In this document: positions 9,614 through 28,109 of the stretch, piece after piece
Numbering within the stretch: position 1 is the stretch's first letter
Layout of the letters: every line of letters starts with the position of its first letter
From: Thermococcus sp.
GTDB lineage: Archaea; Methanobacteriota_B; Thermococci; Thermococcales; Thermococcaceae
Length of the DNA: 35,880 nt
Direction of reading: 5' to 3'
Assembly: GCF_027008145.1 (NCBI RefSeq)
Contig: NZ_JALTCZ010000058.1
Location: 1-35,880 of the forward strand
Translations under genes and position numbers: made by a program
Notes under the pieces: model-generated
Databases searched by the model: none
The model's input: the letters and a program-made list of their open reading frames with translations, nothing else
What the model was told of the DNA's origin: nothing

Positions 9614-9670
9614 AGGGTCAGGGGCCGATTAGTTCATCACGCCTCAGCCACCTACCCTCACATCATCCCC
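9614..9670 (-). ncRNA. C/D box guide RNA (sRNA) predicted to direct two 2'-O-methylations in 16S rRNA
   Basis: Read on the minus strand the elements are in canonical archaeal order and spacing. Box C is AUGAUGU (9666-9660, last base off consensus). A 12-base guide GAGGGUAGGUGG is followed by box D' CUGA (9647-9644), a 4-base spacer GGCG, box C' UGAUGA (9639-9634), a second 12-base guide ACUAAUCGGCCC, and box D CUGA (9621-9618). From memory of thermococcal 16S rRNA, the D' guide forms 10 pairs with ACCUACCCUC and the D guide 10 pairs with GGCCGAUUAG, both in the 5' domain. The fifth-base rule then places the methyl groups on the second C of ACC and of GGCC. Box C overlaps the stop codon of the signal peptidase gene, so the sRNA may be processed from that mRNA. 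The ends given are approximate. Confidence 0.85.
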
Positions 9671-10163
9671 CAAGGCCAAAGGCCTCGCGTATCCAGAGGG
9701 GTATCAAGCCGATCTTGGGGAACACCAGCTCAGACGTTGCCTCGATTGCATATGCTGGAACGCAACCCGCAAGCTCGCCGTTCGGTAGCCTCACCTCAAG
9801 TAAACCCTGGGGACTTGGATACGGCGGATCCGGGACGGGGTTGTTGTCCCCCCACGTTACAAAGCACTTCTCGGCTTTCCCGTTGATCTTGAGCGTGTAT
9901 ATGTACCTGACACGGTGGATTATCGGGTACTCGTAGCCGGGTCTTTTGTAGACGACAACATCGCCGACGTGAATCTGGTCGGGGTTGGTCACCCCCTTAA
10001 GCAGGACGACATCGCCCCTGTAAAAGACTGGCTCCATTGAGCCACTGACCACTATGACGAGCGGTGAATCAGTGTGGAGTGTGAACTTCAGGCCCTCCTC
10101 GAAAGCAAACACCGCTATTAAGGCTACCAGAAGCCACGCAACGTCCTTCTGCCACTCCCCCAT
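9663..10163 (-). CDS. Signal peptidase I (archaeal, S26B type)
   Basis: This 166-residue membrane protease removes signal peptides from exported proteins on the outer face of the membrane. One N-terminal membrane segment (WLLVALIAVFAFEEG) is followed by the catalytic serine in VVSGSMEPVF (Ser42), the conserved His in PIIHRVRYI and an acidic motif TWGDNN, the Ser-His-Asp arrangement of the archaeal/ER family rather than the Ser-Lys bacterial one. A C-terminal hydrophobic stretch (IGLIPLWIREAF) may be a second anchor. The gene overlaps the end of the DUF531 gene by 40 bases, and its stop codon lies inside the box C of the guide RNA. Many substrates are visible nearby, including the subtilisin, the CGTase and the envelope proteins. 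Confidence 0.92.
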   Translation of the reverse strand: MGEWQKDVAWLLVALIAVFAFEEGLKFTLHTDSPLVIVVSGSMEPVFYRGDVVLLKGVTNPDQIHVGDVVVYKRPGYEYPIIHRVRYIYTLKINGKAEKCFVTWGDNNPVPDPPYPSPQGLLEVRLPNGELAGCVPAYAIEATSELVFPKIGLIPLWIREAFGLGG

Positions 10164-12105: not shown

Positions 12106-13455
12106 TCAGGCCCTCCTTATGGCTTCTCTCACCAGCCTTTCAGCCTTCTCCATCAGCTCTTTAGCCTTTTCCTCCGTGCGCGCCTCAAGGGTTATCCTCA
12201 TTATCGGCTCCGTCCCGCTGGGCCTGAAGAGGATCCACCACTCGTCGTTCTCTATCCTAACACCGTCAATGTCTATCAGCCGCTTGTACTCGAAGGTTTT
12301 TAGGACTTCTCTCGCTATGATCTCCATCGCCTTGGTCTTCCTCTCGTTGGGGCAGGGAACCTTCGCCCTCAGCGTTACGTAGCGCGGGACTTCCTTCGCT
12401 AATTCACTTATCGGGCCGAGTTTATCAATCATCTCAAGGACTAAAGCTCCGGCGAATATTCCATCTGGAGTCAGGTTCCACTGGGGGATTATCCACGTCC
12501 CACTCGGCTCTCCGCCGAAAATCCCGCCGTTCTTCGCCAGCTCCTCCGCAACGGCAACGTCGCCAACGCGCGTTCTGACTACTTCCCCGCCGAGAGACTT
12601 CACGTAGTCGTCCAGTGCAAAGCCGGCATCTACGGTGGTTACAACTTTCCCCTTCCCGAACTTTCTCAGCAGGTAGCCGGCTATGAGGGAAAGCATCACC
12701 TCGTACTCGACGAAGTTGCCCTCGTCATCTACAACTCCAATCCTGTCTGCATCTCCATCGTGGGCTATGCCAACCTCTGCCCCCATAGCTTTAACGGTCT
12801 TTGCCAAAGCGGAGAGGCTTTTGGCGTTCGGTTCAAGATCTCTAACAAAGAAACCGCTCGGGTGGGAGTTGATGCTGATAACCTTGTTCCCGAGCCCGCG
12901 CTGGAGGTAGGGGCTCAGAATTGAACCTGCACCGTTGCCGGCATCGAGAACTACCGTGTAGGAGCTTTCAAGCTCGACCATCTTAAGAGCCCTTTTGATG
13001 TATTTCCCCCTCGGGTCGGCCCTCCTGACGGTTCCGATTTCGTTCCAGGGAGCTCTCTTGAAGTCCCCGGAATCTATTATCGCCTCAAGTTCGCCCTCCA
13101 TCTCCGGCGTGTAGGCCATCCCGTTCGGTTGCCAGACCTTAATGCCGTTGTACTCCGGAGGGTTGTGGGAGGCGGTGATGGTAACCCCTGCATCGGCACC
13201 ATAGAGCCTTATCGCAAAGCCCGTCAGTGGAGTTGGGGAGAGACCTATGTCTATGACCTCAACGCCAGTGCTTAGAAGCCCGCTTATCAGGGCGCTCTTC
13301 AGCATCTCACCGCTCGTCCTCGTGTCCTTTCCCACGACGACCATTCCACCATCCAGGTAAGTTCCCAAAGCCTTTCCGACCCTTAAAGCCAGTTCAGACG
13401 TGAGTTTTTCATTGACAACTTCCCTGATGCCGCTCGTCCCGAAGTACTTCCCCAT
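12106..13455 (-). CDS. glmM: Phosphoglucosamine/phosphohexose mutase
   Basis: A 449-residue alpha-D-phosphohexomutase that moves phosphate between C6 and C1 of a sugar. The signature sites are all present: the phosphoserine loop [15 protein letters not shown], the metal loop [10 protein letters not shown], the sugar-specificity loop [11 protein letters not shown], and the phosphate-binding [12 protein letters not shown]. The N-terminus [12 protein letters not shown] fits the archaeal GlmM group, feeding UDP-GlcNAc for glycans, but phosphomannomutase or phosphoglucomutase activity cannot be excluded. The track start is a GTG inside the ribosome binding site (GGGTGGG); the ATG at 13455 is preferred. 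A GGTTATATCG element near 13500 would be its promoter. Confidence 0.87.
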
Positions 13456-13534
13456 GATGCCCACCCGTGAGGGTTATGTTTGGTGGTTTGGAGAAGACGA
13501 TATAACCTTTTTCCTGCAATAAGAAAGAAAAGGC

Positions 13535-13993
13535 TCAGAAGAGGCTGAAGCGCGGGGCCTTGACCTTGATGCCGAGGCCTTCAAGGACTTTTTTCAGCTC
13601 CCTAACCCGTATCGTTCCGTCCCCAGTGTAGAACTTATGATTATCCCCTGCCTTGACCTCAAGCTCTCCCCTCTTCCCGGATTCGGAGTCATCGTTCTTT
13701 ATCTTGACCTCTCTGACCTCCCGGAGGGGTATCTCAAAGTTCTCCTCGCTCTCCTTCAGGATTTCCTCGGGCTCCATCCCATAGTACTCGTTCCAGTGCC
13801 CATAGACTTTAGTAACGCCCTTGAAGAAGCCTCTAACGCCTCCTTCAGCCTCTTTCTTCATCTTTTTGGCGAGTTCGGGTGTTAGGAATGCTACTATCAT
13901 CCTCTTTTCTGTTATGACGAGGTTCGCCCTGCTCTCCCTCATGAATCCTTTCCTGTAGTCAACGTTTCCGACGACGTAGAGAACCTTTTCCAT
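13535..13993 (-). CDS. Small PH-like domain protein of unknown function
   Basis: This 152-residue protein has no membrane segment. The pattern (RANLVITEKRMIVAFLT, then FEIPLREVREVKIKND, then a C-terminal RVRELKKVLEGLGI helix) resembles prokaryotic PH-like domains, which often bind membranes or partner proteins. This is a fold-level guess. The track start is a GTG within GAGGTGG; the ATG at 13993, five bases after that ribosome binding site, is preferred. It is the last gene of the minus-strand envelope cluster, 10 bases after the lipoprotein stop, so it could be the cytoplasmic partner of that cluster. Confidence 0.65.
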   Translation of the reverse strand: MEKVLYVVGNVDYRKGFMRESRANLVITEKRMIVAFLTPELAKKMKKEAEGGVRGFFKGVTKVYGHWNEYYGMEPEEILKESEENFEIPLREVREVKIKNDDSESGKRGELEVKAGDNHKFYTGDGTIRVRELKKVLEGLGIKVKAPRFSLF

Positions 13994-14003
13994 TTCGACC
14001 ACC

Positions 14004-14714
14004 TCAGCCTGTAAACTGTGCTATCTCCTCACCGCTAGGGCTCAGAACCCTGAGGAGAACTTTCCCGCCGAGTTTCTGAGACAGCTCCGACGACATCTTC
14101 CTGTAGGCGTTTTCAGCGCTTCCTATCTCGCCGGCACTGTTGAAGGAGCTCATTGCGCTTATCGTGTAAGGGTTGCTTCCATCGATGAATATGTCCCAAG
14201 GCCCTTTTCCGGCGAAGGAGACCGCGTAGTCGAGAACCTTTTGAGCTTCCTCCTTCTCAACCCCAGAGTACCAGACGGTTATTCCGTTCGACTCGACGTA
14301 GGCGTACTTGCTCTCCACGGAGAAGACCTCCTTTCCATCGCCGTTCAGGAGCTTCAGCGTGACGTTTGCCCCGTTGAAGACATCCTGGGACATCTTGGAG
14401 GCCATTATCCTAACGTAGAAGGCTGTTCTCCTGTCTACGTCGCTGGTACTCTTGTAGGGCGTCGTCACTTTGACGGTGTAAGAACCCCCGCTCTTCGAGA
14501 CGTAGACGTCGGTCTTTCCGTTTATCTGGAAGTTGTCCCTCACGAAGCTCAGAACTGCCTTGGCCTGGGAGAGCGTGATGTCTCCCGAGTAGTGCACGGT
14601 TACTCCATTTATCGTGAGGGTCTTCTCGGTTGTCACGCTCGTCTTTGGGCTTTCACATCCCGTCGCGACGACCAGAAGGGCCACCGCGAGCAGGGCAAAT
14701 ACGAACTTTCTCAT
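14004..14714 (-). CDS. Lipoprotein with an internally duplicated domain
   Basis: The 236-residue protein starts MRKFVFALLAVALLVVATGC, a signal peptide with a lipobox and Cys20 as lipidation site. The mature part looks like two copies of one domain of about 100 residues. Copy one runs from TINGVTVHYSG to KEVFSVE and copy two from ESNGITVWYSG to EEIAQFT. Each has an NG-(I/V)-TV-x-YSG strand, an alanine-rich helix, a second helix ending in an xxMSxxL-like stretch, and a final LxLLNGDGKE/LRVLSPSGEE hairpin. I recognise no family. GGAGG lies seven bases before the ATG at 14714; an in-frame ATG at 14720 is too close to it. Confidence 0.78.
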   Translation of the reverse strand: MRKFVFALLAVALLVVATGCESPKTSVTTEKTLTINGVTVHYSGDITLSQAKAVLSFVRDNFQINGKTDVYVSKSGGSYTVKVTTPYKSTSDVDRRTAFYVRIMASKMSQDVFNGANVTLKLLNGDGKEVFSVESKYAYVESNGITVWYSGVEKEEAQKVLDYAVSFAGKGPWDIFIDGSNPYTISAMSSFNSAGEIGSAENAYRKMSSELSQKLGGKVLLRVLSPSGEEIAQFTG

Positions 14715-14746
14715 ACTCATTCCTCCTTTTTTATGTGAAAACGAAA

Positions 14747-15130
14747 TCACTTCTTCTCAAGCCTGTAGATGCCGACGCTGACATTGTAGGAATCAACGTT
14801 GAGCGGGGCCTTATAGTCAATCCTGACTTGGAATGGCCTGCTTGAGCCATAGATCATGCTGTCCATTTTTGATTCCGTTAGAACGTTGCCGTTCTCGTCG
14901 AGTATCGTTATTTTCTCAACGGTTCCCTCACTGCTCGCCTTGATGTAGTACTTCCCGGGCTCAAGGACGTGCGAGAGGTAGAAGACGTTCCCGCTTACCG
15001 TTTCCGTTTTGACCTCGATGGGCACCCTGCTGTAGGCGTGCAGGTAGTAGTACTGCATCCCGAAGATGCCCGCAACTCCTATGAACAGGAGCAGGAAGAA
15101 GCCGACGATCAGCTTTTTGATGAGTCCCAT
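14747..15130 (-). CDS. Small membrane-anchored extracytoplasmic protein
   Basis: The protein is 127 residues, with an N-terminal anchor (KKLIVGFFLLLFIGVAGIFG) and a beta-rich outer domain of about 95 residues (TETVSGNVFYLSHVLEPGKYYIKASSEG and similar strands) that resembles a small immunoglobulin-like or PPC-like sandwich. No catalytic motif is seen. The track start at 15202 lies within the upstream gene; GGAGGTGAG precedes the ATG at 15130, which is preferred. It lies between the CGP-CTERM protein and the duplicated lipoprotein with short gaps on both sides, consistent with a single operon. Confidence 0.7.
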   Translation of the reverse strand: MGLIKKLIVGFFLLLFIGVAGIFGMQYYYLHAYSRVPIEVKTETVSGNVFYLSHVLEPGKYYIKASSEGTVEKITILDENGNVLTESKMDSMIYGSSRPFQVRIDYKAPLNVDSYNVSVGIYRLEKK

Positions 15131-15155
15131 TTTCTCACCTCCCTTCTTTTTGATC

Positions 15156-16883
15156 TCAACCCCTCCGCCTCCATAGAAAGAGCGGCAGCAGGGCAAGTGC
15201 AACGATAATCCCCGGCCCGCAGGTAAAGCTTATCGAATGACTGCCGATGCTGGAGGGGTTTTTGCCGATGTTCTCCTCAAAACTCCCGGTGCTCGAAGGT
15301 GTAGTTGAAGTAACCGTGCTCGACGGCGTTGAGCTGACCGTAGAGGTTGAGCTCGTTGGTATTGGCGAAGAACCGGGGCTCTGAGTGGCTGAACCGCCCG
15401 TCTGGTTACAGGCTTCCTTAATGTGGAAGTACTCGTTCGGATGGTCGTGGGCCCATACCTTCACCGGAGCGACCTTATACCACTCCCATGTCGGGAGGTC
15501 GTCAAACTCAAAGGACTCTTCAAAGTGGCCCTCCGCATAGAAGGGCACCTTCACGAACTTCACGTCGTCCCCGCCAAGCTCCATGATGTTCAAAACCCAC
15601 CTGCCAGGTTCACCACCTTTCGCCACGTAGTGGACGTCGTAGCCGGCGAACTCCATGTTCAAGCCGAGCTTCACGAATCTATCCGGACCGTGGGTGATGA
15701 AGAGGACGAAGCCTTCTCCAGAGCGGGCTATGTAGTGATCCGAGGGGACGATGTCGTAGTAGACCTTGATGATGTCTCCTGAAGGAGAGGTCTTAACGAG
15801 CGGGTGGAAGAAGACGTAGTTTCCGTCGTTGGTGAGAGCAAAGCCCTGCGGAGACTGCCCAGCCGGGAGGGTAGTGTTCCAGAAACCACTCCAGAGGACA
15901 TTCCCCTTCTTGTCAAGCTTCATCCAGATTGAGGCACCGTCATCGTACTTCCCGGGAAGGCCGTTGGTGTAGAGCCATCCGCCCGGGACGCTGTATAACA
16001 TCGGCCTAGAACCGGAGAGGCTGAAGAACCTGCCCATCTTCCACAGCTCGCTGCCCTCGACGGCCTGCTTGTATTCCCTAACCCATCTCAGGTTTCCAGT
16101 CTCGGGGTCTATGCCTATGAGCCCAAGATCGAGGCCCCAGCGTGGGGTTGAGTACGCTATGACGACCTCGTTCCCATCAAAGCCGACAGCCCAGACGTAC
16201 TCCGAGATGCCCTCCCTGCCGTAGATGTGAACCCACTCAAGGTTCCCGGAGCCATCGAACTTTATCGCTCCAACGTCGAGGTTGGAGGCTATGCGATCGC
16301 TGTCGGAGGGGTCGTCCGGGTTCTTGCGGTGCATGTGAGCGTAAATCGGGGCCATCACGATGGCCCCATCCCCAGTGGGCTGAGTCCTGATCCCCTTATA
16401 GCCACCTTTTGAGTTCTTGAAGGCCCTTGCCCAGACTGGATTTCCTGAGAAGTCGAACTTGACCAGCGTGAAGAGAGGATCTCCCTGCTCCCAGTCGCTA
16501 GGGGCCGAGACGTTAAGGACATTGGCCGTCATCAGGACGACGTAAATCCCGTCCTTTCCCACGGCAATGTCCTGTATGACCTGGCCCTGCCCATAGGGGA
16601 GGTTTAGGGGGAGCTTCTGGCTGAGGCTGAAGTTCTTCATCCAAAGCACTTCACCCATCGGCGAGAGGTGCATCAGGACAGCCAACCCGTCTCCGTGGCT
16701 TCCGAGGAGATAGTAATCCCCAGAGACCCCGGGAACGAAGGAGGCCGGGTTGTAAGAGCTGTCGAGCATTATCTTGTCATTCCGGACGTCGTAGATGACC
16801 TCCCATGCATTAGATGAGCTAACGAAGGGCAGGAATAAGCCCGAGACAATGAAAAGCGCAACCAAAACCTTAAGTTTTCTCAT
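15156..16883 (-). CDS. Secreted beta-propeller-like protein with a CGP-CTERM membrane-sorting signal
   Basis: The 575-residue protein has a signal peptide (LKVLVALFIVSGLFLPFVSS), then a long region of repeated blade-like strands such as LVKFDFSGNPVWARAF, AIKFDGSGNLEWVHIYG and WMKLDKKGNVLWSGFW, typical of PQQ-like beta-propellers. A Ser/Thr/Pro linker (about residues 500-540) leads to the C-terminus CGPGIIVALALLPLFLWRRR. This is the CGP-CTERM signal known from Thermococcaceae, where the Cys is presumed to be processed and lipid-linked. I see no enzyme signature. GGTGG precedes the ATG at 16883; the track start (GTG, 16892) is inside it. Confidence 0.83.
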   Translation of the reverse strand: MRKLKVLVALFIVSGLFLPFVSSSNAWEVIYDVRNDKIMLDSSYNPASFVPGVSGDYYLLGSHGDGLAVLMHLSPMGEVLWMKNFSLSQKLPLNLPYGQGQVIQDIAVGKDGIYVVLMTANVLNVSAPSDWEQGDPLFTLVKFDFSGNPVWARAFKNSKGGYKGIRTQPTGDGAIVMAPIYAHMHRKNPDDPSDSDRIASNLDVGAIKFDGSGNLEWVHIYGREGISEYVWAVGFDGNEVVIAYSTPRWGLDLGLIGIDPETGNLRWVREYKQAVEGSELWKMGRFFSLSGSRPMLYSVPGGWLYTNGLPGKYDDGASIWMKLDKKGNVLWSGFWNTTLPAGQSPQGFALTNDGNYVFFHPLVKTSPSGDIIKVYYDIVPSDHYIARSGEGFVLFITHGPDRFVKLGLNMEFAGYDVHYVAKGGEPGRWVLNIMELGGDDVKFVKVPFYAEGHFEESFEFDDLPTWEWYKVAPVKVWAHDHPNEYFHIKEACNQTGGSATQSPGSSPIPTSSTSTVSSTPSSTVTSTTPSSTGSFEENIGKNPSSIGSHSISFTCGPGIIVALALLPLFLWRRRG

Positions 16884-16895
16884 TTTTTCCACCTA

Positions 16896-17021
16896 TCACC
16901 CTCCTGTTATCCACTTCATGACCTTCCATCCAGCCCAGAGGAAAAGTCCCAGGACAGCTAAAAGGAGGAAAAGTCCCAAGAGTGAACCAACAACATGAAA
17001 TCCCGTGAGGTAGCTTTCCAC
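16896..17021 (-). CDS. 41-residue single-span membrane peptide (not in the ORF track)
   Basis: This minus-strand frame has a GTG start and TGA stop and encodes a short N-terminus, a hydrophobic stretch (VVGSLLGLFLLLAVLGLFLW) and a basic C-terminus (WKVMKWITGG). The positive tail predicts an N-out, C-in orientation. The GTG lies two bases after the stop of the calcium-loop protein gene, and GGGGTGA upstream overlaps that stop, a typical coupled start. The stop is 12 bases before the next ATG. It therefore fills the only gap in the envelope operon with intact signals at both ends. Function unknown; small single-span proteins often adjust or assemble larger membrane complexes. Confidence 0.7.
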   Translation of the reverse strand: MESYLTGFHVVGSLLGLFLLLAVLGLFLWAGWKVMKWITGG

Positions 17022-17023
17022 CT

Positions 17024-18256
17024 TCACCCCTCCACGTTCCTGTACGCTATCGTTATCCTGTGGGAGCAGTCACCGGTCTTCTCATGGTCTACGAGAGTGA
17101 AGACCGTGTAGGTTCCGTCCGAGTTCCTGTTGACGTAAACGTGGCCGGCCTTTATCTCACCACCAACCTCGTCGCTTGGATAGCCGGATGAAGGAATATC
17201 TCCAACGGTAACGTCCCCTATGCCCATCTCCCCGATGTCAACGTAGTGGCCGAGGACTGCCGGATAATCAACGCACCAGGGTTCAGCGAAGAGGTCAACG
17301 TCCTCCCAGCCGTTGCTCCAGCTGGCCTTCACCTCACCGGTCGAAAACTTTACTGCCATGGACCCGTCGGTGTTGAGGGTTACCCGGTGCACCGGGCCGA
17401 GCTTCCCGGTTACCGAACCCGAGGATGAGGTCGTTGAGGTTGAAAACGACTCGTAGCACTCCCTGGCCTGAAGGTAGATCTTGTAGGCCTTTACAGTTTC
17501 ATTGCTTGACTGGTTCTTCGCCATGAGCTGTGTCACGTTGTTGTAGGCCTGCACATAGAGCCTGTAGGCGTCTTCCTTGTTGTCTGGGCAGACGAAGCCG
17601 GCCACTCCGGAAGTGCTTCCGTTTTCGGGCGGGGCGATGGTCACGTTGGCCTGGAACTCGTCGAAGACCCCGTCGAAGTTGTAGTCGTGCAGATCGGGGT
17701 TCCCATCGTAGTCAACATCCCTCTCGTCTATGGTTCCGTCACCGTTGAGATCCCATGCGTCGGCCTTCCCGTCGCCGTTGGTGTCGTAAACATCGGGAAT
17801 CCCGTCCCCGCTCATGTCCCAGGAGTAACTTTTGACCCCGTTCAGCTCGGTTACCCAAGTGTCTGTCTTGCCGTTGTAGTCATTGTCGAGGTACGCTGTA
17901 TCAAGGTTCCCATCGCCGGTGGTGTCGAGGTATATGGCATCAACCACTCCGTCGCCGTTCCTGTCACGAGTTATGACGTAGCTCCCGTTGACGTTCACTG
18001 CCGAGAGACCCTTTCCAACGTAAACGTCTGAAATCCCGTCTCCATCAATGTCGTTCCATCCCTGTTTCAGCGTTGGCTGAGTTGATGTTCCCGTTGTGGC
18101 TGTGCTCGTAGGGGATGCGCCACCTCCAGAGGGTCCGTTTCCTGCCAAGTTGTCCTTTATGTGGATCACGTTGTCTATTATGTGAGGATTGGCGCGGTAG
18201 ATGTAGAGGCCCGCGAGGATCAAAAGGATCAGTATAATGGCGGTGAGTTTACCCAT
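17024..18256 (-). CDS. Membrane-anchored protein with calcium-binding DxDGDG repeats
   Basis: The 410-residue protein has an N-terminal anchor (LTAIILILLILAGLYIYR) and a Gly/Ser/Thr linker. About ten tandem acidic loops follow, such as DIDGDGISDVYV, DRNGDGVVDAIYLD, DTTGDGNLDTAYLD and DTNGDGKADAWDLNGDG, which match the calcium loops of dockerin, thrombospondin type 3 and EF-hand-like repeats (about residues 68-190). A C-terminal beta-rich domain of about 200 residues with paired Cys has no recognised family. The ATG overlaps the stop of the 648-residue gene (ATGGGTAA), and GGAGGTGGGG lies upstream, so the genes are coupled. No cohesin or scaffoldin is present, so a cellulosome role is not implied. 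Confidence 0.82.
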   Translation of the reverse strand: MGKLTAIILILLILAGLYIYRANPHIIDNVIHIKDNLAGNGPSGGGASPTSTATTGTSTQPTLKQGWNDIDGDGISDVYVGKGLSAVNVNGSYVITRDRNGDGVVDAIYLDTTGDGNLDTAYLDNDYNGKTDTWVTELNGVKSYSWDMSGDGIPDVYDTNGDGKADAWDLNGDGTIDERDVDYDGNPDLHDYNFDGVFDEFQANVTIAPPENGSTSGVAGFVCPDNKEDAYRLYVQAYNNVTQLMAKNQSSNETVKAYKIYLQARECYESFSTSTTSSSGSVTGKLGPVHRVTLNTDGSMAVKFSTGEVKASWSNGWEDVDLFAEPWCVDYPAVLGHYVDIGEMGIGDVTVGDIPSSGYPSDEVGGEIKAGHVYVNRNSDGTYTVFTLVDHEKTGDCSHRITIAYRNVEG

Positions 18257-20195
18257 TGCTCCCCACCTCCACGAAGTTCATCCTGAACCAGCCGCCGCCG
18301 ACGCGTTTGAACTTCTTGCCAGTCTCGTAGTCCTCGTAGATGCCCGGTATGGAAGTCTCGTGGAGCACGTAGCCGTTCCAGAGGATCCACCCCTGGTTGC
18401 GCTCCTCTATCTTCTTCCTTAGGTTAATGACGGCCCCGACCGTTGCATCCGCCATGTTGCCGAAGTAGCCCGTCGGGTCGAGGAGCTTTCCTATCTTTGT
18501 GGCTCCGTCGAGGACTATTATTGAGACCTTGGCGTTGTTCGGGAGGTTCATGTTCTTCAGGTCGTTGGCGTGGTCGAGGAGGGCCTTCGCGTCCAGGGCG
18601 ACCATGTAGACCCCGGCAGGGGTTGTGAAGAACTTGACCTTATCAGCTCCCTTGAGCTTGACTGTGTTGCCGACCTTCTCGAAGTTATCGGCGACAAACT
18701 TCGACCAGTCGAGGACTCCTCCTGAGTTGTACTGTCCGCCCACGAGCCACTTCGGAGGCTGAAGGATTCCGGTCAGGATGAGGTTCGTTATCGCCGCCTT
18801 TTCCGCCTCGTTCTTCGCGTACTTGTAGATGAAGTTCTCCATCTCTACGTCCCTCGCCACCGGGTCGTAGCGGTACTTTTCGGCTATCTGCCTCAGCTGG
18901 TAGCGCTTCTCAGGGTCGTTCGCGAATATCGAGAGGAGCGTCTTTATCCTCTGCTGACCGTAGACCTTCTTATCCATGTAGGCGTTCATCTCCTCTACCA
19001 TCTTGTCCGGGTCCTTGATGTTTCTGTCATGTATCTCCCTGAGGTCGTCCTCGTAGACGTTGTAGAGTGAGGTGTAGCCGGGGTGGAGGCTCTTGACCTT
19101 CTCAAGGTAGTTGATGTGGCGCTTCATTATGGATTCAGCCCATTCGAGCTTCTTCTCGTAAACACACTCGTCGCAGGTCGCTATGTCCGGGTCGTCGCAG
19201 TCAACCAGTCCATCCCCATCGTTGTCTATCATGTCCCCGGGCTTTTCCTCGTCGTTGGCGAGGGTTATGCCGACGCTCCCGCTCGCGAGGAGCATCTCCT
19301 TGGAGTCTATGGTGCCGTAAACCTCGACCTTGACGGTTCCCTTCTTGGGCGTGCTCAGGCCCGTGTTCTCGACTATCACGAGGTCGTCTATTGTGCCGTC
19401 GCTGTACACCCTCGCCCTACTCCTGCTACCGTCCGGGGAGGTTATTACCGCGTAGAGATCCTTTGCGTTGCTCTCCGAAACCTTTGCCTTCACTCCAATG
19501 ACGAAAAGGCCGAAGCCGCTGGAGGATGTGAACCTCTGCCCCTCAACTGGGGCGGCTATCGTGAGCTTAGCATTTCCGGTGGTTGTGGTAGTGCTCGTCG
19601 TTGTAGACGAAGTTGATGTGGCGTTGGAGCTGACCTTGGAGACCATGAGGTTCATAAGGGCCCTGCCAACGATGGGTGCCGGGTTGGAAACGTTGTAGAG
19701 GGCCCTTATTTTCACCTCTATCTGGACCACCTCATCAACGTTACCCCAGAAGGTCGGAGGATCTCCGCCGTCGCTCTTGCCTCCGATGACAGTCTGGGCG
19801 TAGTAGGAGCTAAAGTACTTGTAGCTCCACAACTTCTCGTCGAGCCAGGCCACATCGTTGGGACCGCTGTACGTGCACTCGATGGTCCTTTCGGAATGAG
19901 TGCACTTTGAACCCTGAGTGTTCGCACCCCCGCTGAGAACGGCTGATGATCCCTTTTTGATATAAAGGGTTATTTCCATCCAGTCTCCTGACCCGTAATG
20001 GGCCAAATAGTATCGGGTCTCATAGCTTCCGAAACTCTGATGATCGTGCATCTTCGCCCCTTGAAGCCCGAGGGCCGAGAGCTCGTCTACAGCTGGGAAG
20101 TAGGACTCAAGGCTGGATGAGGCTACTGAAAAGGGTACCCCCACAAGGACGGTAAGGATCAGTAGCGCCAGAAACTGTTCACCCCAAAAACCCAT
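18249..20195 (-). CDS. Large secreted protein, first gene of the envelope operon, function unknown
   Basis: The 648-residue protein has a signal peptide (FLALLILTVLVGVPFSVASS), a first beta-rich domain (to about residue 190), a Ser/Thr linker, an immunoglobulin-like domain (about 205-315), and a calcium loop (DNDGDGLVDCDDPD) with Cys pairs. A mainly helical region of about 300 residues follows, starting CVYEKKLEWAESIMKRHINY, and the protein ends with a small beta domain (GWILWNGYVLHETSIPGIYE). No membrane anchor is evident at the C-terminus. GGAGGCG lies six bases before the ATG. A 5-4-5 inverted repeat lies 28 bases upstream of the start. The helical domain matches nothing I recognise and could carry the activity of the cluster. 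Confidence 0.8.
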   Translation of the reverse strand: MGFWGEQFLALLILTVLVGVPFSVASSSLESYFPAVDELSALGLQGAKMHDHQSFGSYETRYYLAHYGSGDWMEITLYIKKGSSAVLSGGANTQGSKCTHSERTIECTYSGPNDVAWLDEKLWSYKYFSSYYAQTVIGGKSDGGDPPTFWGNVDEVVQIEVKIRALYNVSNPAPIVGRALMNLMVSKVSSNATSTSSTTTSTTTTTGNAKLTIAAPVEGQRFTSSSGFGLFVIGVKAKVSESNAKDLYAVITSPDGSRSRARVYSDGTIDDLVIVENTGLSTPKKGTVKVEVYGTIDSKEMLLASGSVGITLANDEEKPGDMIDNDGDGLVDCDDPDIATCDECVYEKKLEWAESIMKRHINYLEKVKSLHPGYTSLYNVYEDDLREIHDRNIKDPDKMVEEMNAYMDKKVYGQQRIKTLLSIFANDPEKRYQLRQIAEKYRYDPVARDVEMENFIYKYAKNEAEKAAITNLILTGILQPPKWLVGGQYNSGGVLDWSKFVADNFEKVGNTVKLKGADKVKFFTTPAGVYMVALDAKALLDHANDLKNMNLPNNAKVSIIVLDGATKIGKLLDPTGYFGNMADATVGAVINLRKKIEERNQGWILWNGYVLHETSIPGIYEDYETGKKFKRVGGGWFRMNFVEVGSNG

Positions 20196-20282: not shown

Positions 20283-20638
20283 TCTCAGAGGAGGTATGCT
20301 CATGTCACCACCATCTTGCAAAACCATCTCGCGGAAAAGAAAAGCGGGACAGGTTTCGCGTTTCTTTTAGCAAATTACGCATTTCTGGGTAATAAGACTT
20401 TCGGAAAAGAAAATTCGACTAAAAACAACATAAAATGTAGATGTTATATCTCCGAAGATTCTTCAAGTTACCTGTTTCATAATCCCAAACATCTCAATAT
20501 AATGTTAATGACGAAAAGTTTCCAAGAAGATATTTAGAAGAAACCCAAAGCAATAAAAGAAGTAAAAACAGAAAATGAAAAGCCGAAGTGGGGGCAATAA
20601 AAGCAAACTCTTTGTTAGGAAATGAATAGGTGATGAAA

Positions 20639-22485
20639 GTGAACAAACTCGACCCAAAGATGGAGAATTTGCTTGGGATATTGAAACAGGCTGAAGATGG
20701 AAAATTAGTCCTTCCTCAGTTCCAAAGAGACTTTGTGTGGTCTAGGCAGGATATTGAGGATTTGCTTGTGTCTCTACTTAATGGATACTTTGTTGGTACC
20801 TTTCTCTTCCTCAGGACAGACCCCACTAACCCACCCTTTACTTGGAGACCAATTCAAGGAGTTACCCTTCCAAGAAACAGGGATGGAAAGCCCATAGGGA
20901 ATCCCGAGACCATGATTCTTGATGGTCAGCAGAGGATAACATCACTGCACTATGTGTTTTATGCACCCCCAAAGGAAGTTGTTACACCAAAGTACACCAG
21001 CAGGAGATATCTCTTCTTTTTGAAGCTTGAAGAGTTAGAAAAGGGTAATGTTAAAGAAGCTGTGTTCAGTATGAATGAAGATGATGCTAGAAAGTACCTG
21101 GACAAAGAATATCAATTTGAGCACAAAATAGTTCCATTCACAGAGCTCTCTAACAAAGAAAAGTAGAAAGACTGGATAGAGGAGTTTATAGAATGTCATA
21201 ATATATAGAGGAGAACATTGGTGAAGAAGTTAGCTATAAACAGGGCAGAGAACTCACCCAAGAGTACAAGAGACAACTTAAGGCAAAGGCAGACTTCTGG
21301 GAGAGGTACACTAACAATCTCCTAGGGTTCAAGGTTCCGGTCCTATATCTGCCAGAAATTGAACTAAATGACAGGGAAAAGCTTGGTGAAGTCTGCACAA
21401 TTTTTGAGAAGATGAACAGTACCGGGGTCAGGTTGTCTGTCTTTGACTTGCTAACTGCCAGGCTCTATAAAAACGGTATTGACCTCCACCAGACGTGGCA
21501 GGATACCATTGATAGGTTTGACAGTATCAAGAAACTTTCTGAGGAGAAGCCAGATCTATTTAAAGTGCTGGTACTCAGGGCACTGGGGCTTATGCGGGTG
21601 CTCAGAGACAAGAATAAAGACAAGGAAGAAAGGGAGATTACCGATGTCAAGAACAGATCCCTGATTAATCTCTCCCCGGTGGATTTTGAAGAAGATTGGT
21701 GGACTATAGCAGAATACTTTGACAGGGCCATTGGGAGAGTTATGAGTACCAACCGAGATGGGTTTGGGGCATTCCTGCCAAGGTGGGTCCCTTACAAACC
21801 CATGCTCCCAGTTTTGGCAGCACTTCTCTACTACATAGAGGGCACCAAGGATTTATCTCCAATAGAAAAGAGCAGGGCCTACACACTAATAAAACAGTGG
21901 TACTGGAGTTCAGTATTTACTGAGAGGTACAGCAGTGCCGTTGAGTCAAAGTCCTTGAGTGACACATTGGAGCTAATTGAAGCTTTTAAGAAGCCTGAAT
22001 TCACACCATCAATGGTTAATGAAGCCAGAACAAGGGTACCTTCTCTGAATCTGTATGCAGTGTCAAGGAGTGGTAGTGCAGTTTACAGGGGCATTATGAG
22101 CTTAATTGCATTGAACCATGCAAGAGACTTTCTCCAAGTTGATGCTATAGAATTCCACAACCTAGAGGACCATCACATATTTCCCAAAAACTTCCTAGAG
22201 AAGAAGATGAGGATTAAAGATAAATCTAAAATCAACACCATACTCAACAGAACCCTTATCACTGATGAGACCAACAGAAAAATCTCAGCAACATCACCAA
22301 AAGAGTATATTGACTGGATTCCCGGTGATTTGGAAGAGGTGCTTAAGCCCCACTTCATTAATCCCAAGTGCATTGAATCCATGAGGGAGAACAGTTATGA
22401 TAAGTTCTTAGAAAGAAGAAGAATGCTTATTCTAACCAAAGTGCAAGAGCTTATAGGCGAGAAGGAAAGTACGTCAACACATTAA
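20639..22485 (+). pseudogene. Broken DUF262/DUF1524 (GmrSD-like) protein gene
   Basis: The 5' part encodes a DUF262 domain (LPQFQRDFVWSRQDIEDLLV, ILDGQQRITSLHYVFY). The 3' part encodes the partner DUF1524 HNH region (HNLEDHHIFPKNFLEKK). These domains form the GmrSD-type, modification-dependent restriction nucleases. An in-frame TAG at 21164 falls where a Trp is plausible (NKEK-stop-KDWIEEF), and the sequence continues in the same frame to about 21205. It then resumes in another frame (NIGEEVSYKQGRELTQEYKR), which stays open to 22485. One nonsense and one frameshift change therefore break a single ancestral gene of about 610 codons. Base composition is AT-richer than the neighbours. The start is set at the GTG four bases after GGTGAT. 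Confidence 0.82.
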
Positions 22486-22635: not shown

Positions 22636-23412
22636 TCAGAACCGGAGATTTTTCGCTAACTCAATCAGTTTCCTCGCCCTCCCCAGAGAAACTTCGTTTT
22701 CCACCTTCCCATCCCTCTTTATCCACGTCCCCACTATAAAGCCGTCCGCATGCTTCCACAGCTTTGGAAGGTTCTCGTAGCTCGTCCCGGAGCCAACCAG
22801 AACGGGAACGGGTGAGATTTTCTTAGCCAGTGAGAGCCTATCGATGTCGACCGGCTCCCCGGTTGCCCTTCCGCTTACTACGACAGCATCGGTCAGGCCC
22901 CTCTCAACGGTGTCCCTCAGAGAATCCTCAAAATCCAAGAAGTGGACGGCGTGTTTGACGTGGACGTCGGCGAAGACCTGAATTTTTGAGGGAAGGAGCT
23001 TTCTCAGCCTTGCAAGCTCGTGGGCGATGCCCTCTATGACGCCCTGATCCGTGTAAGCTACACCGCTCAGAACGTTCACCCTTATGAAGTCGGCTTTGAC
23101 CGCGTAGGCAATGGAGTAAGCTGCTATGCCATCGTTCCTGAGGACGTTTATTCCCAGCGGAAGGGAAACTTCGTCCCGGATTTCCTTTGCAACGGCTGTA
23201 AAGACTGCTACGGCTGTCTTATCAACGTACTTTGGAAAAGGAACGTCTCCGAAGTTCTCAATCATTATCGCGTCGAAGCCCGCTTCTTCAATCGTTTTCG
23301 CATCCCTGATCGCGGACTCAATGACTCCGTCAAGGTCGCCGTCGTAGCGGTATGAACCGGGGAGGGGGTTCAGGTGAACCATCCCTATGAGGGGCTTTCT
23401 CTCAAAGTCCAT
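22636..23412 (-). CDS. BtpA/SgcQ family TIM-barrel protein
   Basis: The 258-residue protein matches the BtpA family: an N-terminal IGMVHLNPLPGS, then GFDAIMIENFGDVPFPK, ADFIRVNVLSGVAYTDQG, AVVVSGRATGEPVDI, PVLVGSGTSYENLPKL, ADGFIVGTWIKRDG. The alternating strands and the glycine-rich phosphate-binding end (VGSGTS, VGTWIKRDG) indicate a (beta/alpha)8 barrel that binds a phosphorylated ligand. BtpA was named for photosystem I stability in cyanobacteria, but archaea lack photosystems, so the actual substrate here is unknown. No signal peptide is present. It stands alone between the pseudogene and the divergent PH-SHOCT gene. Confidence 0.86.
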   Translation of the reverse strand: MDFERKPLIGMVHLNPLPGSYRYDGDLDGVIESAIRDAKTIEEAGFDAIMIENFGDVPFPKYVDKTAVAVFTAVAKEIRDEVSLPLGINVLRNDGIAAYSIAYAVKADFIRVNVLSGVAYTDQGVIEGIAHELARLRKLLPSKIQVFADVHVKHAVHFLDFEDSLRDTVERGLTDAVVVSGRATGEPVDIDRLSLAKKISPVPVLVGSGTSYENLPKLWKHADGFIVGTWIKRDGKVENEVSLGRARKLIELAKNLRF

Positions 23413-24141: not shown

Positions 24142-27100
24142 ATGAGGGCCGGTCTAGTTTCACTTGCCGTGCTTATCCTTGCGTTTCTTATCCTTACCTC
24201 CTCCCTCGGTCAGCCTGGCCTGGCACCCCAGAGGGGTCCTGTGAAGGTCGGAAAAGGTCCGGAGCTACCCATACTCACAAAGAACCTCACGCTCACGGTC
24301 TACAATGCAACGCACGTCTCCTACCTAAGGGTCGAGGTCTTCGGGAACTACTCCGATGGGCACTGGATACCGGTCACTGCCAACTACTCAAAGAGGCCCA
24401 TCCTGAGTGAGCCCTCGCTTCCCCACCACACCGAGTTCGATAGGGTTGAGGTTAAGGCCGGCTTCGTGATAAACGGCACACTCCCCCTGCCGCTCAATAC
24501 GGTCAACGTGAGCGTTAGAACCCTCTGGGACAGGAACGGAGGCACGTTCAGAACAGTTGGGGAGATCGCCGAGTACAACTTCACCGCCGTGAGCTACTCC
24601 TATGACCTCCCGGTGCTCTTCAACCTGACCCCCGGGAAGCTTGAGGGATACCTCGCCATACCACCCGGACTCAGGGATGCCGTTCTCCCGATTGCCCTGA
24701 CCTTCAACAACACCGGCCTTGGAAAGTACTTCGAACTGATGAACCTCGTGGACTACCTCCTCTACTCAAAGAGGTACTCGAAGAACGTCACCTTCCCACA
24801 GGGGGTTGACAGGATTGCCTACTTCCTTGAAAACTCAAGCTACGGCACTTCCTATGACTTCGCCTCCGCCCTCGTCTTCCTGGCGCGCGCGGTGGGGATT
24901 CCAGCAAGACTCGTCAAAGGTTACAAGATACTCCCAAACCCGGAGAAACAGGTCATCAACGCGAGCAGGTTCTACTACTGGGTCGAGGTCTACTTCAACG
25001 GTATCGGCTGGCTGACCGTTGACCCGCTCGTCCCCCACCCCTATCCCGGGCAGTACGTCCCGCTCTCGGCCGTTCCCGTGAGGAAAACCATAAATGGAAC
25101 CGAAGCTAAGTTCCTGCTCCTCGACGTGAAGGGGAAAGCGAACCTCAGTGACCTGAGGGTTATAAGCCCCCTCAACGTCTCGATGGAGGTTTCAAACTTC
25201 TCCGTTAGGGTAACAGTCAGGGAGAAGCCGGGGAGAGGACTTTACCCAATAGTCCTGACAAACGGGGAGGGAAGGGCGGTCTATTCGCTGGCCTGGCTCA
25301 ACGCCTCGAGCGACGTCGAGCCACCAGGAATATTGAGGGCCATTGCCGGGGCTGGCTCCCGCTATTCACTCGTTCTCTGGGGGGAGAGCAACCTGTCCGT
25401 GGAAACCAGCAACTGGATAAAAACGCTGAACGTGATTTCGAGTGCCGGAAAGAGACGGCTGTGGTTCGCCATAACACCCCCTGAGGGAGCCAGACTCGGC
25501 CTGAACCTCCAGTGGATAAGGCTGAAATCTGGGGGGAAAAAGGAGACCGTCTACCTCCCCGTTTACGTGTCTGATGTTACCGCGGTGAACGCCAGTGCAC
25601 CCCTCTCAGCTACCGTTGGAGAGCCCTTCAACGTCACCGGGAACGTGAGGGGCATTGGAAGCGACGGACGGCCCAATGGAACTGTCGTATTCTTCTCCGG
25701 CGACGACAGATACCCAGTCATAGGGACGGGAAAAGCTAGAAACGGAAAATTCAAGCTGAAGGCCGAGTTTCCCCTGGAGGAAACGCCCGGTTTAAAGCAC
25801 CTAAACCTCTACTTCTTCCCGGAGGAGATGACCGGTCGCTACTGGCCCCTCTTCCCGGGGATAACCTTCATACCCATGACCGTCATCCAGAGAAGTTACT
25901 TCAACGTGAGCAGGGTAGTCATTACAAGACCCGGGGAACTGTCCCTGACCGGCAGACTGCAGGAGCCGGCCGGGAAGCCCATAGGGAACGCGACCTTTGA
26001 CTACTTCTGGGGCAACATGAGTGGTAAAGGCGTGACCAACGAGGAAGGGGAGTTCACCCTGAACCTCAACGTGAGCCTCGGAGAGCACCTCCTCGGGCTT
26101 GTATACACCGGGAACGCGCTCTACAACGGCACGTACGCCAATGTCCAGGTCTACGGCGTTCTCGTTCATGCCCCGGCGGTCGTTAGGGGCACCATAGGAA
26201 AGCCGATTCCCGTCTTAGCCACCGTTGAGGGAATGAGGAGCGGGACGATAAGGCTGACCTTCGGCAATGAGTCAAGAAAAATAGAGGTCGCCAACGGCTC
26301 CTTCTCGGTGAACATCGGGCCCTTCAGGCGAGCCGGGGAGTACGCCGTCTACCTATGGGGCACCTGGACGATAATAGGCACCCTTCAGGTCGTTGTAGTT
26401 TCACCTCTCAACCTGACCGTTGAGACAAAGGAGGTGAAGGCGGGAGAAAGCAACAGAATCGTAATAGTGGCAAGGGACGGCCTCGGAGACCCAGTTCCAA
26501 ACATACCCCTCCACATAACGGTTCCTGGATTCAACGGCACGATGTACACCAATGGAAAGGGGCAGGCCGAGCTGTTCCTCAACTTCACCAAGCCCGGAAA
26601 AGTAACCATTGAAGTTACCTTCAGGGGCTCGACTTTCTACATGCCCGCTGAAGTCAGGGCGACAATAGAGGTTGTCAAGGGCAGAAGCCCACTGCCGTAC
26701 CTTCTCCTGCTCCTGGCCATACTCCCCCCGCTCTTCCTCATGAGGAAGAGGAAAAAAACTGTGGAAGAAGATGCCGGCGGGATGCTCGTGGCAGGGGGGG
26801 TTCCGATTGTGAGGGAGGGTGAACCCTTCGAGGTCGAACTCCTCTGCGATGGCGAGCTCTTCGTGGACGGGAAGCCCGTAGGGAGGGGGAGAAAGTTTAA
26901 GCTCAGCCTGGAAAGCGGGAGGCACAGGCTTGAGGCAAAGTGCAGCAGGAGGCGCTTTGGGGTTGCGGTTGACGTATACCCCGAATACAGAGTGGCGGTG
27001 GAGGAGCTCTACGACGACTTCCTGCGGTGGGCCTCAAAGCTGATAAACGTTGGGAGCCTAACACCGAGGGAGATAGAGGCGACCCTTTCGAAGGTAATCC

Positions 27101-27225
27101 CGCAGGCGGGGGCGTTAAGGGACATAAGGGAGGCTGTTGAAGTGGCCCTCTACGGGGGCAGGGAGCCCAGCAGGGAGGCCTTCCTGAGGTTTTACAGGGC
27201 CGTTGAAAGGGTGGTGAACCAATGA
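24142..27225 (+). CDS. Large surface protein with a degenerate transglutaminase-like domain
   Basis: The 1027-residue protein has a signal peptide (GLVSLAVLILAFLILTSSLG) and a transglutaminase-fold core at about residues 230-300 (SYDFASALVFLARAVGIPARLVKGY, then YYWVEVYFNGIGWLTVDPL). The normal Cys-His-Asp triad is not intact: the Cys position reads Ser237 (GTSYDF), the His position Tyr278, and only Asp294 remains. Several Ig-like or carboxypeptidase-regulatory-like beta repeats follow, then a membrane helix near residue 850 (LPYLLLLLAILPPLFLM) and a cytoplasmic domain of about 150 residues that resembles the DUF4129-like tails of such proteins. Many N-glycosylation sequons support an extracellular location. 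First gene of a four-gene coupled operon; ATGA overlap with the next gene. Confidence 0.82.
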   Translation: MRAGLVSLAVLILAFLILTSSLGQPGLAPQRGPVKVGKGPELPILTKNLTLTVYNATHVSYLRVEVFGNYSDGHWIPVTANYSKRPILSEPSLPHHTEFDRVEVKAGFVINGTLPLPLNTVNVSVRTLWDRNGGTFRTVGEIAEYNFTAVSYSYDLPVLFNLTPGKLEGYLAIPPGLRDAVLPIALTFNNTGLGKYFELMNLVDYLLYSKRYSKNVTFPQGVDRIAYFLENSSYGTSYDFASALVFLARAVGIPARLVKGYKILPNPEKQVINASRFYYWVEVYFNGIGWLTVDPLVPHPYPGQYVPLSAVPVRKTINGTEAKFLLLDVKGKANLSDLRVISPLNVSMEVSNFSVRVTVREKPGRGLYPIVLTNGEGRAVYSLAWLNASSDVEPPGILRAIAGAGSRYSLVLWGESNLSVETSNWIKTLNVISSAGKRRLWFAITPPEGARLGLNLQWIRLKSGGKKETVYLPVYVSDVTAVNASAPLSATVGEPFNVTGNVRGIGSDGRPNGTVVFFSGDDRYPVIGTGKARNGKFKLKAEFPLEETPGLKHLNLYFFPEEMTGRYWPLFPGITFIPMTVIQRSYFNVSRVVITRPGELSLTGRLQEPAGKPIGNATFDYFWGNMSGKGVTNEEGEFTLNLNVSLGEHLLGLVYTGNALYNGTYANVQVYGVLVHAPAVVRGTIGKPIPVLATVEGMRSGTIRLTFGNESRKIEVANGSFSVNIGPFRRAGEYAVYLWGTWTIIGTLQVVVVSPLNLTVETKEVKAGESNRIVIVARDGLGDPVPNIPLHITVPGFNGTMYTNGKGQAELFLNFTKPGKVTIEVTFRGSTFYMPAEVRATIEVVKGRSPLPYLLLLLAILPPLFLMRKRKKTVEEDAGGMLVAGGVPIVREGEPFEVELLCDGELFVDGKPVGRGRKFKLSLESGRHRLEAKCSRRRFGVAVDVYPEYRVAVEELYDDFLRWASKLINVGSLTPREIEATLSKVIPQAGALRDIREAVEVALYGGREPSREAFLRFYRAVERVVNQ

Positions 27226-28109
27226 GGTGGGAAGTGCTTGAATACGCCGGCGTTGCCCTGGCCTGGGCAGGGCTTGTCTACTCGGGACTCGCACCGGCCT
27301 GGAGTATCGTCCCGGTAACCATCTTCATCTCATCGTTTTTGATTTCAGGTTTCTTCGTGGGCAAAACCAAATTAAGGATACGGTGGCTTGGAACCGCCTT
27401 TGCTTTCCTCACAACCGGGAGGTCTTGGGGAGTTGGGGGCGCGGTAATAGCCATCGGGGAACTGCTCAGGGAGGAGGGTTCCTCTGAGGAGTCCTTCCTG
27501 AAGGCGGGCCTCGGGGAGTCCCTGGAAATCTTCGGGACGGCCTTCATCTTTCCGGTTCAAGTGGCTCCCATCCCCCTCCTGGCCGGAGCATTCCTGCTCG
27601 TAGCTTATGCCCTCTCCCTCCGCTGGGAGGAGCTGAGGGGAAGCGTCCTGGCCTTCCCGGTAGTTGGAGGTGCCCTCGGCCTCTACATAATCGCCCGCCC
27701 TTACCTCCTCAGATACGGGCACTGGAGCATCGTCGAGTGGCTCGCCCTCCTCATAGCGGTTCTCTTCTCGGCGGGAATAGCGCTCAACTCAGTCCACTCA
27801 CCGGAGGACTACATGAGGGAGCTCCTCAGGGAGAGCAAAAGACCGACCGGAGAAGCTGAGAAAGCGGTTGAGGAGTTCCTTGTGGAGGGGAAGAGGGGAA
27901 AGCTACTCTCCTACGTGGCCTTCTACGGTTCCAAGGTGACGTCGAGCAGGAAAGAGCTTTTGGAGCTCATAGGGCCCCTCGCCGATTACGAGGCCAGAAA
28001 GCCGGGCCCGCTAACCCCCTACTGGCTCAGGAAGCTCCTCCTCAGGAGGGAGTTCGATAGGAGGAAGGAGATAGTCGAAAGCATAATGAAGAAACTGGAG
28101 GGCCTGTGA
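27222..28109 (+). CDS. Multi-pass membrane protein of the DUF58 operon
   Basis: The 295-residue protein has about six hydrophobic segments in its first 190 residues (for example YAGVALAWAGLVYSGLA, VPVTIFISSFLISGFFVG, LLAGAFLLVAYALSL and WLALLIAVLFSAGIALN), then a charged cytoplasmic tail of about 100 residues ending in basic helices. I recognise no family. Its ATG overlaps the stop of the transglutaminase-like gene (ATGA), and its stop abuts the DUF58 start, so it is translated in step with both. It may be the membrane scaffold that links the extracellular domains to the cytoplasmic tail domains. Confidence 0.75.
   Translation: MRWEVLEYAGVALAWAGLVYSGLAPAWSIVPVTIFISSFLISGFFVGKTKLRIRWLGTAFAFLTTGRSWGVGGAVIAIGELLREEGSSEESFLKAGLGESLEIFGTAFIFPVQVAPIPLLAGAFLLVAYALSLRWEELRGSVLAFPVVGGALGLYIIARPYLLRYGHWSIVEWLALLIAVLFSAGIALNSVHSPEDYMRELLRESKRPTGEAEKAVEEFLVEGKRGKLLSYVAFYGSKVTSSRKELLELIGPLADYEARKPGPLTPYWLRKLLLRREFDRRKEIVESIMKKLEGL

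What the first reader, a model, noticed from the sequence alone, without database searches (positions are those of the whole stretch)
13535..20195. Seven-gene envelope protein operon with no recognised function
All seven genes run one way with overlaps or short gaps. Six of the products are extracytoplasmic or membrane proteins: a secreted calcium-loop protein with an unknown helical domain, an anchored calcium-repeat protein, a mini membrane peptide, a CGP-CTERM propeller-like protein, a small anchored beta protein and a duplicated lipoprotein. A cytoplasmic PH-like protein is last. The mix of anchors, calcium repeats and propellers suggests a multi-subunit surface assembly. None of the pieces matches a known secretion, pilus or uptake system.
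Basis: partly seen in the sequence, partly recalled or inferred. Interest (0 to 1): 0.7.

Follow-up and report, generated by a model that had tools for sequence, protein, structure and literature searches.

The report
Exchangeable two-part archaeal surface cassette
In heat-loving Thermococcales archaea, species swap between themselves a block of surface-protein genes whose core is a secreted protein with a fast-changing front end and one of two tail types, each tail always paired with its own membrane-anchored partner, as in systems microbes use to fight or recognise one another.

Summary
The seven same-strand genes are real. All but the last look extracytoplasmic or membrane-anchored, and apart from the CGP-CTERM anchor none matches a curated family. 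But they are not a fixed seven-part machine. They fill a chromosomal slot between BtpA and a phosphohexomutase whose contents are reshuffled across Thermococcales. The core is genes 1-2. Gene 1 is secreted, with a hypervariable N-region and one of two unrelated C-terminal domains: AC (18 genomes) or BC (30); only two genomes have both. Gene 2 has one N-terminal membrane helix and a partner domain: PA (calcium loops) or PB. Every intact AC gene examined is followed by PA (17) and every BC gene by PB (22), with no cross-pairing. On a tree of neighbouring genes the type switched at least 8 times. Mosaic genes show tail, junction and partner exchanged as one block. Two species share 96-100% identical cassettes inside about 90% identical flanks. 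Most likely this is a recognition or antagonism cassette organised like polymorphic toxins: the secreted protein is docked or neutralised on its own cell by the cognate partner. Pairing and exchange are shown; binding, toxicity and role are inferred. It resembles VARTIG and polymorphic toxins but is not shown to be a member of either.

The parts
18249..20195 (-). gene 1 (648 aa): secreted protein; signal/TM helix aa 8-26
   Evidence: ORF; hydropathy; 18 genomes carry its C-terminal domain
19584..20117 (-). gene 1 hypervariable N-region (aa ~27-204)
   Evidence: mean pairwise identity of N regions 37% (A set) and 35% (B set) against 74% (AC) and 60% (BC) for the tails; dN several-fold above the tail in nearly all close pairs
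19260..19583 (-). gene 1 Ig/PKD-like beta domain (aa ~205-312)
   Evidence: AF2 beta-sandwich, local pLDDT mostly 48-76; best PDB analogues are PKD/Ig-like, none significant
19161..19247 (-). calcium-loop linker DNDGDGLVDCDDPDIATCDEC (aa ~317-345)
   Evidence: sequence; sub-threshold NF033662 match
18252..19172 (-). gene 1 C-terminal domain type A (AC, 307 aa), unknown helical + alpha/beta domain
   Evidence: alignment A1, mean column identity 81%; no Pfam/PDB match
18249..18256 (-). 8-nt gene1/gene2 overlap ATGGGTAA, type-A junction
   Evidence: same 8-nt overlap in nearly all type-A loci, 4-nt in type B (coordinates)
17024..18256 (-). gene 2 (410 aa): membrane-anchored partner, N-terminal TM aa 1-22
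17600..18070 (-). partner domain PA: calcium-loop repeats
   Evidence: alignment A5; always directly follows AC
17027..17599 (-). C2 domain of gene 2, four invariant Cys, shared by PA and some PB genes
   Evidence: alignment A4; 27 genomes including remnants
16896..17027 (-). gene 3: 43-aa LTGF membrane peptide
   Evidence: tblastn relatives directly after gene 2 in about ten other loci
15156..16892 (-). gene 4: CGP-CTERM anchored, probably propeller
   Evidence: TIGR04288 above cut-off; about 14 genomes with near full-length relatives
14747..15130 (-). gene 5: small anchored beta protein
   Evidence: 55 of 94 genomes
14004..14714 (-). gene 6: lipoprotein with internal duplication
   Evidence: hhalign of halves E 6e-10; 29 of 31 genomes with it carry a module
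13535..13993 (-). gene 7: soluble protein, cytoplasmic by absence of signal
   Evidence: 24 of 26 genomes with it carry a module
12106..13464 (-). slot flank: phosphohexomutase
   Evidence: Pfam PGM_PMM I-IV; flanks the slot in most genomes
22636..23412 (-). slot flank: BtpA family gene
   Evidence: Pfam PF03437; next to the module in most genomes

Best explanation
The locus is a horizontally exchanged surface cassette in a fixed slot. Its core is a secreted protein (gene 1) with a hypervariable N-terminal region and one of two interchangeable C-terminal domains, plus a cognate partner (gene 2) anchored in the membrane by one N-terminal helix and exposed outside. The tail and partner domain form a specific pair, which is inferred to bind. 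Gene 2 thereby holds or neutralises gene 1 at the producer's own surface, while the variable N-region contacts neighbouring cells or other targets. Organisation and inheritance are those of polymorphic effector/immunity cassettes, so the most likely role is recognition of or antagonism towards other cells. g3, g5, g6 and g7 are accessory envelope and cytoplasmic parts carried with it. Shown: topology by sequence, obligate pairing, block exchange, cassette transfer, N hypervariability. Inferred: physical binding, docking or neutralisation, and role.
For: Pairing: AC-PA 17, BC-PB 22, no exceptions in fetched loci, with type-specific gene overlap (Fisher p 2e-11 ignoring phylogeny); partner follows tail type in 6 of 6 phylogenetically independent contrasts (p 0.03) with at least 8 A/B switches on a flank tree. 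Genome-wide, PB occurs with BC in 29 of 30 genomes; the exceptions are a PB remnant and a 53%-complete genome. Block swap: L034 (A) and L172 (B) are 90-97% identical over the first ~80 aa of gene 1, unrelated in tail and PA/PB, and 62-90% identical again over most of C2; L025 (A) and L160 (B) share BtpA 90%, N 52%, g4 80%, but tail and partner are unrelated. Cassette transfer: G015 and G068 are 94-100% identical (mostly 96-100%) over the cassette, 90-92% in the PGM flank and 82-92% towards BtpA; module dS is mostly below BtpA dS. Topology: no TM in any tail; an N-terminal TM helix in every complete gene-2 protein.
Against: Only two tail types, both under purifying constraint, whereas classical polymorphic toxins vary at the tail and here the N-region varies most. 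No toxin, nuclease or other catalytic family match. No tandem orphan immunity genes; orphans are decayed remnants. The shared C2 domain and linked g6/g7 suggest more than immunity. No binding, killing or localisation data exist. AF2 models are low confidence (mean pLDDT 47 and 44).
Confidence: 0.55

Rival explanations
1. True toxin-immunity system of the colicin M kind: the tail kills by acting on the outer face of the membrane or envelope of related cells, the variable N-region binds a receptor, and gene 2 is an anchored immunity protein acting outside the membrane.
For: Tail plus adjacent cognate partner swapped as a block; partner anchored by one N-terminal helix, the topology of colicin M immunity protein (own knowledge); horizontal exchange; few genomes carry both types.
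Against: No toxin homology; no orphan immunity arrays; only two, strongly conserved tails; accessory genes and C2 not needed for immunity.
Confidence: 0.33
2. Display system without toxicity: tail-partner docking presents the variable N-region as adhesin, kin-recognition tag or decoy against viruses.
For: N-region is the fast-evolving part; one type per genome in 44 of 46 carriers; PA weakly resembles dockerin calcium loops; Ig-like domain precedes the tail.
Against: Dockerin similarity is weak (E 0.0055) and PB has none; nothing shows display or homotypic recognition.
Confidence: 0.4
3. Fixed multi-subunit envelope machine of seven parts.
For: Compact gene order; g6 and g7 associate with modules.
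Against: Parts are reshuffled and individually absent in most genomes.
Confidence: 0.08
4. Nutrient-acquisition or hydrolase complex exchanged for substrate range.
For: Secreted plus anchored proteins with beta and calcium domains are common in such systems (own knowledge).
Against: No CBM, hydrolase, transporter or binding-protein family in the cassette.
Confidence: 0.07

Closest known systems
VARTIG (VARiable Thermococcales IG) module, Makarova et al. 2021, PMC8416519
   Same: Thermococcales-only, hypervariable, leading large secreted protein with Ig-like domain, followed by small membrane proteins; exchange between species at a conserved place; likened to polymorphic toxins
   Different: VARTIG variability is in the C-terminal Ig domain with a DNNxxxGG C-terminal motif, exchanged on several occasions next to an RNase III-like gene; here 0 of 40 gene-1 proteins have the motif, the variable part is N-terminal, tails are apparently non-Ig with obligate partner domains, and the slot is BtpA-PGM
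Polymorphic toxin systems / contact-dependent inhibition (CDI, Rhs)
   Same: C-terminal domain and adjacent cognate gene exchanged as a unit; secreted; horizontally spread
   Different: N-region not conserved; two tails only; no known toxin fold; no orphan arrays
Colicin M / Cmi and S-type pyocins (own knowledge)
   Same: variable receptor part, few effector domains, cognate neighbouring immunity; Cmi has the same single-TM anchored topology
   Different: no sequence similarity detected; domain of life, envelope and additional cassette genes differ
Cohesin-dockerin docking
   Same: calcium-loop domain used for docking; PA weakly matches dockerin chain 5lxv_B
   Different: PB partner lacks it; no cohesin found

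Membership tests
Polymorphic toxin system | C-terminal domain exchanged between otherwise similar proteins | tested here: met
   exchange of AC/BC behind related N-regions; toxicity itself not tested
Polymorphic toxin system | cognate immunity-like gene directly downstream, following tail type | tested here: met
   17 AC-PA, 22 BC-PB, no exceptions; 6 of 6 independent contrasts
Polymorphic toxin system | recognisable toxin fold in the tail | tested here: not met
   no Pfam/NCBIfam/PADLOC/PDB match
Polymorphic toxin system | conserved N-terminal trafficking region | tested here: not met
   N-region is the most variable part
Polymorphic toxin system | orphan tails or immunity genes in arrays | tested here: not met
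   only decayed remnants
Polymorphic toxin system | inhibits sensitive neighbours, protected by partner | not testable with these tools
   needs co-culture
VARTIG | C-terminal D[ND]NxxxG[GD] motif | tested here: not met
   0 of 40 gene-1 proteins
VARTIG | C-terminal half made of Ig domains | tested here: inconclusive
   AC predicted helical then alpha/beta with Ig-like fold only before it, but model confidence is low to medium
VARTIG | arCOG07710 membership | not tested
   arCOG profiles not available
CGP-CTERM anchored proteins (gene 4) | TIGR04288 above cut-off | tested here: met
   30.4 against 21 bits
Dockerin (PA) | two F-hand calcium loops recognised by cohesin | tested here: inconclusive
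   E 0.0055 to 5lxv_B only
PH-like (gene 7) | match to a PH family | tested here: not met
   no Pfam match; hhalign to bPH_3 neighbours probability 9.6%

The most novel reading that the evidence does not exclude
An undescribed archaeal self/non-self system: a secreted protein with a hypervariable recognition region is displayed by one of two interchangeable lock-and-key anchor pairs, and cassettes are traded between species by recombination in the flanking genes. All core domains (AC, BC, PB, C2) would be new families confined to Thermococcales.
Probability: 0.35. Interest if true: 0.8.

Novelty: new variant of a known kind. Interest (0 to 1): 0.62.

Why it matters
Conflict and recognition systems of archaea are largely unknown. 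This cassette gives a compact, testable pair (AC-PA against BC-PB) with natural cross-type controls, in about half of the Thermococcales species searched (46 of 94). One of them appears to be the genetically tractable Thermococcus kodakarensis: G024 is a single contig of 2,088,737 bases, the KOD1 length from memory. It also explains why seven genes here look like a machine with no name: they are the current content of an exchange slot.

Tried and rejected
Known secretion, pilus or uptake system: no family match. Mobile element or virus: no tRNA or Rfam hit around the slot, no relatives of AC, BC or C2 in viral contigs and none of AC in plasmids; no integrase was noticed in the slot, though its singleton ORFs were not all annotated. 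AC homologous to BC, or PA to PB: hhalign says no. PB or C2 derived from g6: no. Bacterial promoter/terminator scan: not above shuffles and not meant for archaea. Literature: VARTIG found and distinguished; the archaeal polymorphic-toxin paper of 2019 is not held; no paper in the library mentions TK2180-TK2184 (that these are the KOD1 module genes is an inference).
Full report
Observation. The window lies on contig 58 of a fragmented Thermococcales genome, G000. The seven minus-strand ORFs are at the stated places, tightly spaced or overlapping. Six have signal peptides or membrane helices and the last has none. Library searches return nothing above cut-off except the CGP-CTERM anchor of g4. 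The g6 duplication is real. The g4 propeller is only suggested, and the PH-like call on g7 is not supported.

The slot. Neighbourhood maps of the window and 56 fetched stretches show these genes in one chromosomal slot between a BtpA-family gene and a phosphohexomutase in most carriers. Exceptions lie elsewhere (for example L031, L041, L171, L173) or next to BtpA on its other side (L027). What fills the slot varies: genes 1-2 of type A, genes 1-2 of type B, both, or neither, with g3-g7 present or absent. Many genomes keep only g5 there. Order-wide, g5 is in 55 of 94 genomes, g6 in about 31, g7 in 26 and g4 in about 14. g6 and g7 are strongly associated with having a module (29 of 31 and 24 of 26); since they share the slot, physical linkage may explain part of this.

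The core pair. Gene 1 begins with a signal or TM helix and ends in one of two unrelated domains, AC (307 aa) or BC (about 237 aa). Gene 2 has one N-terminal TM helix followed by PA (calcium loops) or PB, and in all complete PA and some PB genes by C2 with four invariant cysteines, which argues for an extracytoplasmic place. In every locus with an intact pair, AC precedes PA (17) and BC precedes PB (22). The overlap is 8 nt in nearly all type-A junctions and 4 nt in type-B junctions wherever the start codon was called correctly. AC is in 18, BC in 30, PB in 30 and C2 in 27 of 115 genomes of the phylum, all Thermococcales. AC and BC occur together in two genomes only. G026 has a PB remnant without BC, and G054 (53% complete) has BC without PB.

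Exchange. On a tree from up to eight flanking genes the A/B state changes at least eight times, and the presence pattern is no more clustered than shuffled labels. A tree from BtpA alone gives nine changes. Partner type follows tail type in 6 of 6 independent contrasts. Mosaics show the exchanged unit directly. L034 (A) and L172 (B) are 90-97% identical over the first ~80 aa of gene 1, decay to background before the tail, are unrelated across tail and partner domain, and recover to 62-90% over most of C2. L025 (A) and L160 (B) share BtpA (90%), N-region (52%) and g4 (80%) but nothing in tail and partner. G015 and G068 are 94-100% identical (mostly 96-100%) over the cassette but 90-92% in the PGM flank and 82-92% towards BtpA. 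Synonymous divergence of module parts is mostly below that of BtpA between the same genomes, though not in every pair (L179/L182 is the other way round). The simplest reading is recent transfer of whole cassettes by homologous recombination in the conserved flanks.

What varies. N-regions average 35-37% identity against 74% (AC), 60% (BC), 73% (PA), 61% (PB) and about 86% (PGM). In close pairs dN of the N-region is mostly two- to ten-fold that of the tail. dN/dS stays below 1, so diversifying selection is not proven.

Function. Shown: a secreted protein and an anchored protein (by sequence) inherited as matched pairs and exchanged as blocks. Inferred: matched pairs bind. Two mechanisms fit. 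In one, gene 2 protects the producer against a toxic tail acting outside the membrane, as in colicin M and its single-helix immunity protein (own knowledge). In the other, gene 2 is a dock that keeps a variable recognition protein on the surface. The few, conserved tails, the absence of orphan immunity genes, the shared C2 and the accessory genes lean slightly to docking; the block exchange leans to immunity. Both are recognition or conflict functions, which is the committed reading. The two rivals listed separately are the two branches of this reading, so their confidences overlap with that of the best explanation. Structure prediction gave only a beta N-region, an Ig/PKD-like domain at about 205-312, a helical bundle at 342-475 and an uncertain alpha/beta end, without informative fold matches.

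Known systems. The nearest described thing is VARTIG (PMC8416519), also confined to Thermococcales and compared by its authors with polymorphic toxins. None of 40 gene-1 proteins carries the VARTIG C-terminal motif; the variable part, the tails and the slot differ. Polymorphic toxin membership fails on a recognisable toxin and a conserved N-region, and is untested on toxicity. So it works like such a system in its genetics but is not filed as a member.

Limits. Gene calling outside the window was a simple script. A/B counts rest on 39 intact pairs from about 40 loci of 94 genomes, and closely related genomes are not independent, which is why the 6 contrasts matter more than the Fisher value. 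Genome identities are unnamed, and the Thermococcus kodakarensis identification rests on genome length from memory. Only 21 non-Thermococcales genomes of the phylum were searched.

Noticed in passing
window 20630-22485 (+): A GmrSD-type (DUF262) restriction gene, apparently split into two ORFs in different frames (GmrSD_N in the first, weak GmrSD_C in the second), sits inside the slot between BtpA and gene 1; not seen there in the other fetched loci.
   Followed up: partly
L027 (gene between the g5-like gene and gene 2), L175, L188, L189: The same slot in other genomes carries a ~945-aa CGP-CTERM propeller-like protein next to g5-like genes, another alternative cargo.
   Followed up: no
L176:1098-1442, L171, L193, L027, L031, L189: A longer membrane protein sharing the YLTGFxxxGP start of gene 3 often lies just upstream of gene 1, so LTGF peptides occur on both sides of the pair.
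   Followed up: partly
window 24142-29989 (+): Transglutaminase-core protein with bacterial Ig-like domains and three following genes next to the slot; present in some genomes at this place and replaced by other genes in others.
   Followed up: no
G041:C2:218873-218998 and G029:C1:942447-942581: C2 remnants with internal stops beside g5, suggesting module loss by decay leaving g5.
   Followed up: no
window 9663-10163 (-): ORF whose sequence resembles an archaeal type I signal peptidase (by eye only).
   Followed up: no
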